This document shows, piece by piece, positions 6,956 to 8,544 of a stretch of DNA of 34,679 nucleotides. Position 1 is the first letter of the stretch. Every line of letters begins with the position of its first letter. The notes beneath the pieces were generated by a model. That model was not told the DNA's origin. It worked only from the letters and a program-made list of their open reading frames with translations, and searched no databases. The translations under genes were made by a program, and so were the position numbers. This stretch comes from Candidatus Acutalibacter pullistercoris (lineage in GTDB: Bacteria; Bacillota; Clostridia; Oscillospirales; Acutalibacteraceae): positions 1 through 34,679 of the forward strand of contig DXDU01000115.1 in NCBI GenBank assembly GCA_019115285.1. The letters run 5' to 3'.

Positions 6956-7217
6956 GCTCACAAAAAAGGAAGCCCGAAGGCTTCCCCCTTTCAATCTTCC
7001 ATTTCGAGCAGGGCCCGAGGTGTTGGGGCCGCTCGCAAAAAAGGGAAGCCCTGAGGCTTCCCCCTTTTATCTTTCCGCTTCGAACAGGCCCCAGAGCGTT
7101 GGGCCGCTCGCAAAAAAGGGAAGCCCTGAGGCTTCCCCTTTTTAATCTTCCGTTTCGAGCAGGGCCCGAGGTGTTGGGGCCGCTCACAAAAAAGGAAGCC
7201 CTGAGGCTTCCCCCCTT
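6956..7217. repeat. ~75-bp tandem array: decayed degV 3' end plus hairpin terminator
   Basis: gctc[ga]caaaaaaggaagccctgaggcttcc units begin at 6956, 7031, 7106 and 7182 (periods 75, 75, 76). Confidence 0.9.
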
Positions 7218-8127: not shown

Positions 8128-8156
8128 TTGACATCGTTTCGGGTTCGTTCTATAAT
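8128..8156 (+). promoter_or_regulatory. perfect consensus sigma-A promoter reading away from degV
   Basis: TTGACA-17 bp-TATAAT; no ORF follows before the 8213-8253 hairpin, suggesting a small RNA. Confidence 0.75.
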
Positions 8157-8162
8157 AAGGGT

Positions 8163-8255
8163 AGAAAGAGAGCCTGCCGGCAACACGGTCAGCCCTCAGA
8201 TACTGTCACTAGAAAATGACCGCATTCCTTGGCTTGGGGCGGTCATTTTCTTTTG
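8163..8255 (+). ncRNA. candidate small RNA, convergent with the 33-aa ORF (possible type I antitoxin)
   Basis: Lies between the consensus promoter at 8128-8156 and the hairpin aaaatgaccgc...gcggtcattttcttttg. Confidence 0.45.
8213..8253. terminator. bidirectional intrinsic terminator
   Basis: aaaatgaccgc (8213-8223) pairs with gcggtcatttt (8239-8249); T-rich tract on both strands; contains the stop codon of the 33-aa ORF. Confidence 0.8.
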
Positions 8256-8344
8256 TCCCAATAGGTCCACAGGGTCCACAGAAACCCGGCGAAACCCAGG
8301 AGCATGAGCATCACCTGGCAAAAGTCAGCGAGCGTCATGTACAT
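8243..8344 (-). CDS. small hydrophobic protein, putative holin-like/type I toxin (33 aa)
   Basis: MYMTLADFCQVMLMLLGFAGFLWTLWTYWDKRK: one TM segment with charged C-terminus; G-rich RBS (AAAGGGGGG) upstream; absent from the ORF track because of its length. Confidence 0.6.
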   Translation of the reverse strand: MYMTLADFCQVMLMLLGFAGFLWTLWTYWDKRK

Positions 8345-8515
8345 GGGAGATCCCCCCTTTCGAGGGGCGAAACCTTTTTAAAAGTTCCCAAAAGAATTTC
8401 CTATCCCTTACGGGATAAGACCCCTCTGCTTTCCACAGAGGGCCGACCGCAAACCGGGAGAAAGATTCCCGGTCTACCGCATACGGCAAGCTCCCGCGGG
8501 TCACCCCGCAGGTCT

Positions 8516-8544
8516 ATTCTACCAAAGACCGCGTTTTTTTACAA
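8516..8544 (-). promoter_or_regulatory. putative promoter of the 33-aa ORF transcript
   Basis: TTGTAA-17 bp-TAGAAT on the minus strand. Confidence 0.5.

What the first reader, a model, noticed from the sequence alone, without database searches (positions are those of the whole stretch)
8128..8544. Candidate type I toxin-antitoxin locus with an unannotated 33-aa hydrophobic ORF between degV and the dehydratase gene
Seen: minus-strand ORF 8243-8344 encodes MYMTLADFCQVMLMLLGFAGFLWTLWTYWDKRK (one TM segment, charged tail). Its transcript would start at TTGTAA-N17-TAGAAT (8544-8516) and carry a ~165-nt leader with several hairpins. The G-rich RBS is inside cccct-cgaa-agggg and again in gggg-gatc-tccc. 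Convergently, a perfect TTGACA-N17-TATAAT (8128-8156) starts a ~90-nt RNA with no ORF. Both transcripts end at a shared bidirectional hairpin (8213-8249) that contains the toxin stop codon. Known: par/Fst- and TxpA/RatA-type systems pair a small membrane toxin mRNA having a sequestered RBS with a convergent antisense RNA overlapping the 3' end; holin-like toxins of this size occur in Firmicutes. Inference: that this locus works this way.
Basis: partly seen in the sequence, partly recalled or inferred. Interest (0 to 1): 0.78.

Follow-up and report, generated by a model that had tools for sequence, protein, structure and literature searches.

The report
Compact BsrG-type toxin–antisense RNA cassette
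Between two ordinary genes of a gut bacterium (genus Acutalibacter) sits an unannotated 33-residue membrane peptide gene facing a convergent antisense RNA; it is one of hundreds of related cassettes in gut Firmicutes that share the anatomy of the known bsrG/SR4 type I toxin–antitoxin system.

Summary
The 33-aa ORF (8243-8344, minus) is conserved in five other copies with pN/pS 0.18 and faces a perfect-consensus antisense promoter. The locus belongs to a large cassette family: 7 strong copies in its own genome, up to 23 per genome in the genus, 25% of 295 sampled genomes of the order, scattered members across the phylum. The same anatomy occurs at annotated 'putative holin-like toxin' loci of Bacilli and at bsrG in phage SPBc2, whose published mRNA structure has helix P1 in the corresponding place. 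Best reading: a type I toxin–antitoxin module of BsrG/SR4–BsrE/SR5 type, in compact form. It is not par/Fst: the repeats are inverted, not direct. The toxin mRNA probably does not end at the shared hairpin. Expression and toxicity are untested; the peptide itself fails Pfam's Hol_Tox cut-off. Novelty: a variant of a known kind, strikingly multiplied.

The parts
8516..8544 (-). toxin promoter TTGTAA-N17-TAGAAT with TG-extended -10
   Evidence: 9/12; equivalent weak TG-extended promoters in homologous cassettes
8484..8495 (-). leader arm A (GGGAGCTTGCCG) of the long 5'-3' helix
   Evidence: pairs with 8168-8179 in the MFE; arm covaries across cassettes
8438..8449 (-). leader arm B (CGGTCGGCCCTC) of the long 5'-3' helix
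   Evidence: pairs with 8186-8197 in the MFE; conserved in copies of the order and phylum
8347..8372 (-). Shine-Dalgarno region, masked in hairpin CCCCTCGAAAGGGG
   Evidence: sequence, folding; same hairpin type CCCCTATGAAAGGGG before bsrG
8243..8344 (-). 33-aa single-TM peptide MYMTLADFCQVMLMLLGFAGFLWTLWTYWDKRK (putative toxin)
   Evidence: pN/pS 0.18 over six copies
8211..8251 (.). hairpin holding the toxin stop codon; intrinsic terminator of the antisense RNA, its U-tract templated by the C-terminal Lys/Arg codons
   Evidence: 11/11 pairs with compensatory changes in 89 copies
8168..8197 (-). 3' arms B' (8197-8186) and A' (8179-8168) that pair with the leader; the plus strand of the same stretch is the 5' part of the antisense RNA
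8128..8156 (+). antisense RNA promoter TTGACA-N17-TATAAT
   Evidence: 12/12; 12/12 in 107 of 130 cassettes
8163..8256 (+). predicted antitoxin RNA (~95 nt), a leader-like hairpin plus terminator, no ORF
   Evidence: folding z -3.1; ends inferred from promoter and terminator

Best explanation
The locus is a type I toxin-antitoxin module that works like bsrG/SR4 and bsrE/SR5 of Bacillus subtilis. A weak promoter makes a ~350-nt mRNA for a 33-aa membrane peptide. Its Shine-Dalgarno sequence is masked in a local hairpin, and its 5' leader pairs with its own 3' end (8495-8438 with 8197-8168), closing the mRNA into a compact, poorly translated form. A stronger convergent promoter makes a ~95-nt antisense RNA whose terminator is the complement of the stop-codon hairpin and whose 5' half has the same sense as the leader arms. 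The antisense RNA probably first contacts the stop-codon hairpin loop, then takes over the 3' arm by displacing the leader, giving a ~95-bp duplex open to RNase III. Shown here: coding conservation, promoters, both covarying structures, family spread. Inferred by homology: membrane toxicity, transcript ends, binding pathway, decay. Compact variant: the separate toxin terminator that stands between the 3' arm and the antisense promoter in Bacilli is missing.
For: Purifying selection on the peptide. Family in 20/29 genus, 68/300 family and 75/295 order genomes. Stop-codon hairpin covaries at all 11 pairs. Leader:3' arm pairing has z < -3 in 96 of 127 cassettes; cognate A-arm score 7.8 against 3.5 for non-cognate, with pairs taking several Watson-Crick types. 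Pairing is stronger on the toxin strand than on the complement in 109 of 128 (p ~1e-15), which fits RNA pairing within the toxin mRNA. It recurs in 24 of 31 order/phylum loci not used to build the searching model; the leader was never part of any model. Antisense promoter 12/12 in 107/130, toxin promoter weaker. Same anatomy in annotated holin-like toxin loci and bsrG. BsrG, BsrE and some cassette relatives score above the PF16935 cut-off. Model R2 hits a Paenibacillus holin-like toxin locus at 8.7e-6. The bsrG helix P1 and the SR4 binding pathway are in PMC6562991 and PMC7430163.
Against: No expression or toxicity data. The window peptide does not reach PF16935; the peptide link is transitive, via relatives such as L002 (20.9 bits, just under the 23.3 cut-off) and L122 (32.5 bits). 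About a quarter of cassettes show no strong leader arm in my automated search, partly through mis-set boundaries, partly perhaps decayed copies. A specificity test on whole leaders was weaker (cognate ranked first in 4 of 27 one way and 16 of 27 the other) than the arm-wise test, which itself used rows already selected for B-arm pairing. SD accessibility is predicted low with or without the 3' arm, so the long helix may not be the main translational block. Controls for the pairing were mononucleotide shuffles; for the window alone z is -3.9 and 4 of 500 random window segments do as well.
Confidence: 0.82

Rival explanations
1. par/Fst-type module: the antisense RNA pairs both with the shared terminator and, through direct repeats, with the toxin leader/translation start, sequestering the SD directly.
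For: Convergent promoters, hairpin near the stop codon, 33-aa membrane peptide with charged tail; architecture as in PMC7472228.
Against: The leader arms and the antisense RNA are the same sense (inverted repeats in DNA), so they cannot pair through them; no PXXXG motif in the peptide; closest match by anatomy is bsrG.
Confidence: 0.05
2. A regulated small membrane protein that is not a toxin (a signalling or membrane-modulating peptide, such as the competence inhibitor ComI) controlled by the same type of antisense RNA.
For: Some relatives match NCBIfam ComI weakly; up to 23 copies per genome is odd for killing modules; purifying selection.
Against: Antisense control by a perfect-consensus promoter and layered masking of the RBS are typical of toxins; BsrG itself, with the same locus anatomy, causes lysis (PMC7430163).
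Confidence: 0.1
3. The inverted arms are terminal repeats of a small mobile DNA element (MITE-like) rather than RNA pairing elements.
For: Many dispersed copies, tandem duplicates, and an orthologous site that is empty in nine genus genomes and filled in two.
Against: The arms lie inside the promoters, differ between copies while matching within each copy, and show G:U-tolerant pairing on one strand. Target duplications or outer repeats were not searched for systematically.
Confidence: 0.03

Closest known systems
bsrG/SR4 and bsrE/SR5 of Bacillus subtilis (peptides in Pfam PF16935 Hol_Tox)
   Same: Convergent antisense RNA at the 3' end; SD hairpin of the same form; one TM segment (BsrG ends KKK); stop codon in a hairpin; long 5'-3' helix (P1); stronger antisense promoter (PMC6562991, PMC7430163).
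   Different: No separate toxin terminator between the 3' arm and the antisense promoter; antisense RNA ~95 nt (predicted) instead of 180 and 163 nt; peptide below the Pfam cut-off; many copies per genome in Oscillospirales relatives. Only bsrG, not bsrE, was compared at the RNA level here.
txpA/RatA (B. subtilis skin element)
   Same: 3'-overlapping convergent antisense RNA, RBS sequestered in the mRNA (PMC7430163, PMC3531473).
   Different: 59-aa toxin, 222-nt RNA; no direct sequence comparison with the window was made here.
sprG1/SprF1 (toxin PepG1)
   Same: Relatives of the window peptide match NCBIfam PepG1 weakly.
   Different: Far below the family cut-off; RNA anatomy not compared here.
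AapA/IsoA of Helicobacter pylori and hok/Sok
   Same: 5'-3' long-distance pairing of the toxin mRNA (PMC6733600).
   Different: There the long-distance pairing itself masks the SD and 3' trimming activates translation; here the arms lie well upstream of the SD, which has its own hairpin.
C. difficile CD2517.1/RCd8-type modules
   Same: Clostridial, convergent, overlapping antisense RNA (PMC6563280).
   Different: 50-53-aa toxins described as lacking homology to known type I toxins; not compared directly.

Membership tests
BsrG/SR4-BsrE/SR5-type type I TA | small single-TM peptide with charged C-terminus under purifying selection | tested here: met
BsrG/SR4-BsrE/SR5-type type I TA | convergent antisense RNA overlapping the toxin 3' end, stronger promoter than the toxin | tested here: met
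   sequence level only; no transcript data
BsrG/SR4-BsrE/SR5-type type I TA | 5'-3' helix (P1) of the toxin mRNA and stop-codon hairpin complementary to the antisense terminator | tested here: met
BsrG/SR4-BsrE/SR5-type type I TA | SD sequestered in a local helix | tested here: met
   prediction:
BsrG/SR4-BsrE/SR5-type type I TA | separate intrinsic terminator of the toxin mRNA downstream of the 3' arm (seen in bsrG and Bacilli loci; the point in which the window is a variant) | tested here: not met
   present; absent between 8168 and 8156 in the window
BsrG/SR4-BsrE/SR5-type type I TA | toxicity, RNA expression, RNase III-dependent decay | not testable with these tools
   needs experiment
Pfam PF16935 Hol_Tox | score above the gathering cut-off (23.3 bits) | tested here: not met
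   no hit for the window peptide, so it is not filed as a PF16935 member; relatives in the same cassette type L122 32.5 and L217 46.4 bits
par/Fst | direct repeats DRa/DRb giving complementarity between leader and antisense RNA | tested here: not met
   arms are inverted repeats; antisense 5' part has the same sense as the leader
par/Fst | PXXXG(C) motif in the toxin | tested here: not met
   peptide sequence; motif from PMC7472228
par/Fst | bidirectional intrinsic terminator shared by both RNAs | tested here: inconclusive
   better U-tract in the antisense direction; conserved element beyond it on the toxin strand
AapA/IsoA, hok-type | long-distance interaction directly masks the SD | tested here: not met
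   arms at 8438-8495, SD at about 8347-8360 in its own hairpin
C. difficile RCd8-10 modules | sequence homology of toxin or RNA | not tested
   not compared

The most novel reading that the evidence does not exclude
The antitoxin RNA is essentially a copy of the toxin leader: leader and antitoxin compete for the same 3' arm of the toxin mRNA, so silencing works by strand exchange. This exchange is the ancestral control of the whole 'holin-like toxin' class across Firmicutes, amplified in gut Oscillospirales to 20 or more copies per genome with locus-specific arms.
Probability: 0.4. Interest if true: 0.7.

Novelty: new variant of a known kind. Interest (0 to 1): 0.55.

Why it matters
It places an unannotated class of tiny genes, present in many copies in relatives of gut commensals, next to a well-studied toxin-antitoxin system, and gives phylogenetic covariation evidence for a long-range mRNA helix of the kind probed in vitro for bsrG. 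It also supplies an RNA signature (stop-codon hairpin, 3' arms, perfect antisense promoter) that finds these loci where the peptides are too short and divergent for protein models, and it raises a testable question: why a genome keeps up to 23 such modules.

Tried and rejected
Protein-level searches (Pfam, NCBIfam, plasmids, phages) found nothing for the window peptide, and tblastn in the family gave mostly weak hits; the DNA search of the whole cassette opened the family. Rfam: no relevant match even at a permissive threshold. A viral-contig pattern scan for the Acutalibacter-type 3' arm found none. L077 looks like a chance match inside coding sequence. Whole-leader cognate/non-cognate ranking was inconclusive and was replaced by the arm-wise test. 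I considered that the long helix itself masks the SD, but predicted accessibility is similar with and without the 3' arm. A paper on bsrE/SR5 structure (PMC4705377) was not held. Nothing was found in the held literature on such cassettes in Oscillospirales, but most subscription papers are not held, so the novelty judgement rests on limited reading.

Full report
What is in the sequence. The minus-strand ORF 8243-8344 encodes MYMTLADFCQVMLMLLGFAGFLWTLWTYWDKRK. A weak TG-extended promoter lies at 8544-8516 and a perfect TTGACA-N17-TATAAT at 8128-8156 on the plus strand. The flanks are degV (PF02645, start 8087) and a gene with a CoA-enzyme-activase domain (DUF2229). The mRNA 8508-8160 folds far better than shuffles (z -7.4), the antisense RNA moderately (z -3.1).

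Relatives. Neither Pfam nor NCBIfam names the peptide. A DNA search of the whole cassette found copies in other genomes of the genus. Pattern hits in named records place the genus as Acutalibacter (Candidatus Acutalibacter stercorigallinarum, and an 'uncultured Neglecta' chicken MAG). Five copies carry nearly the same 33-aa peptide, with pN/pS 0.18 in the coding frame and 0.39 to 6.1 in the other five frames. Other copies, including several in the window's own genome, carry 28-33-aa peptides such as MSDFELLSIVLMILAIIVTLMVELFKSMKK-like sequences.

A covariance model of the 3' part of the cassette (R1) found 7 strong copies in the window's genome, copies in 20 of 29 genus genomes with up to 23 each, and in 68 of 300 genomes of the family. 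A broader model (R2) found 75 of 295 genomes of the order and 19 of 399 of the phylum. E-values of these models are rough, so independent support matters: most hits have a short hydrophobic ORF ending in the expected hairpin and the leader pairing described next, which no model contained.

Two structures conserved by compensatory change. First, the hairpin that contains the toxin stop codon: in 89 copies 97% of cells pair and all 11 stem pairs show changes on both sides; over the whole 14-pair structure 12 pairs do, against 5.4 in shuffles. Stop codons TGA, TAA and TAG are each matched on the other side. In the antisense direction the U-tract after this hairpin is templated by the Lys/Arg codons at the end of the peptide, so the hairpin looks like a good antisense terminator and a poorer toxin terminator.

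Second, a long-range helix. The leader has an arm A (GGGAGCTTGCCG, 8495-8484) and an arm B (CGGTCGGCCCTC, 8449-8438). Beyond the hairpin are B' (GAGGGCTGACCG, 8197-8186) and A' (CGGCAGGCTCTC, 8179-8168). The predicted mRNA structure closes on these arms. In 96 of 127 cassettes the leader pairs with the 3' segment at z below -3. Arm A differs widely between cassettes (TAGAGCATACC with GGTATGCTCTA; CAGAGTGTACC with GGTACGCTCTG; AAGGTGTTGTC with GGCAACACCTT) yet matches its own partner: mean score 7.8 against 3.5 for foreign partners, and best of all in 34 of 54. The pairing is better on the toxin strand than on the complementary strand in 109 of 128 (p about 1e-15), which points to RNA pairing in the toxin mRNA rather than a DNA repeat. 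It recurs in 24 of 31 loci from the wider order and phylum. For the window alone the statistic is modest (z -3.9); the weight lies in the family.

Consequence. The 5' half of the antisense RNA has the same sense as the leader arms. It cannot pair with the leader as RNA II of par does, but it is fully complementary to B'-A' and so would compete with the leader for them (inference).

Link to known systems. Annotated 'putative holin-like toxin' loci on plasmids of Paenibacillus, Virgibacillus, Shouchella and Lactobacillales, a Bacillus subtilis plasmid locus, a Brevibacillus phage and bsrG in phage SPBc2 show the same order: leader arm, SD, peptide, stop-codon hairpin, 3' arm, then an intrinsic terminator-like hairpin in the toxin direction, then the antisense promoter region (L226 and L227 did not show the pairing clearly). 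The bsrG leader even has the same SD hairpin form, CCCCTATGAAAGGGG against CCCCTCGAAAGGGG. BsrG and BsrE score above the Hol_Tox cut-off (peptide letters recalled, BsrG confirmed by a 100% match to SPBc2), as do the cassette relatives in L122 and L217. R2 finds the Paenibacillus locus at 8.7e-6. In published work bsrG RNA has a helix P1 whose 3' part is bound by loop 3 of SR4 after first contact between loop 3 of bsrG and the SR4 terminator loop (PMC6562991; PMC7430163). That the window's long helix is the counterpart of P1 is my inference from position and.

How the window differs. There is no separate toxin terminator: the antisense -10 lies about 12 bases beyond A', so the antisense RNA is about 95 nt, against 180 nt for SR4. 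Its promoter is perfect consensus in 107 of 130 cassettes, with the toxin promoter clearly weaker (the -10 but not the -35 was part of the search model).

Mobility. degV and its neighbour are adjacent with a gap of 97-185 nt (or 129-539 nt in more distant or duplicated cases) and no cassette in nine or more other genus genomes, and with a cassette only in the window's genome and G223, so the cassette was gained or lost at this site. Whether it moves by itself is unknown.

Limits. No RNA or toxicity data; genomes are mostly unnamed assemblies of varying completeness; literature was limited to open-licence papers.

Noticed in passing
G215 cassettes, e.g. L066 2650-3140, L145, L146, L147: Tandem cassette pairs about 430 bp apart; many lack an ATG: a strong SD is followed by ATA or ATT at the start position (ITVYETLHL...), suggesting non-canonical starts or decay.
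   Followed up: partly
L177, L180 (G125, G216): Two cassettes in inverted orientation flank a MATE-type transporter gene in two genomes; a similar inverted pair flanks another gene in L176.
   Followed up: partly
window 8385-8397 and L234-L237: ATTCTTTTGGGAA of the cassette leader, unique in its genome, resembles sequence upstream of degV at empty sites of related genomes and recurs in cassettes L062, L063, L065 elsewhere; the MYMTL subtype may have arisen at the degV site.
   Followed up: partly
window about 7040-7140: Two identical hairpins (GGGAAGCCCTGAGGCTTCCC, 75 bp apart) in repetitive sequence downstream of the MATE gene.
   Followed up: no
L070 and L076 (own genome C150, G223 C4): Cassettes with extra hairpin-forming sequence inserted inside the 3' arm.
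   Followed up: no
L233 (G220): Direct duplications of the C-terminal end of the DUF2229-type gene upstream of degV at an empty cassette site.
   Followed up: no
L089, L108, L165, L175: Weak model hits with a different peptide type ending in APKAC but several still with leader:3' arm pairing; possibly another small-protein class using the same RNA frame.
   Followed up: no
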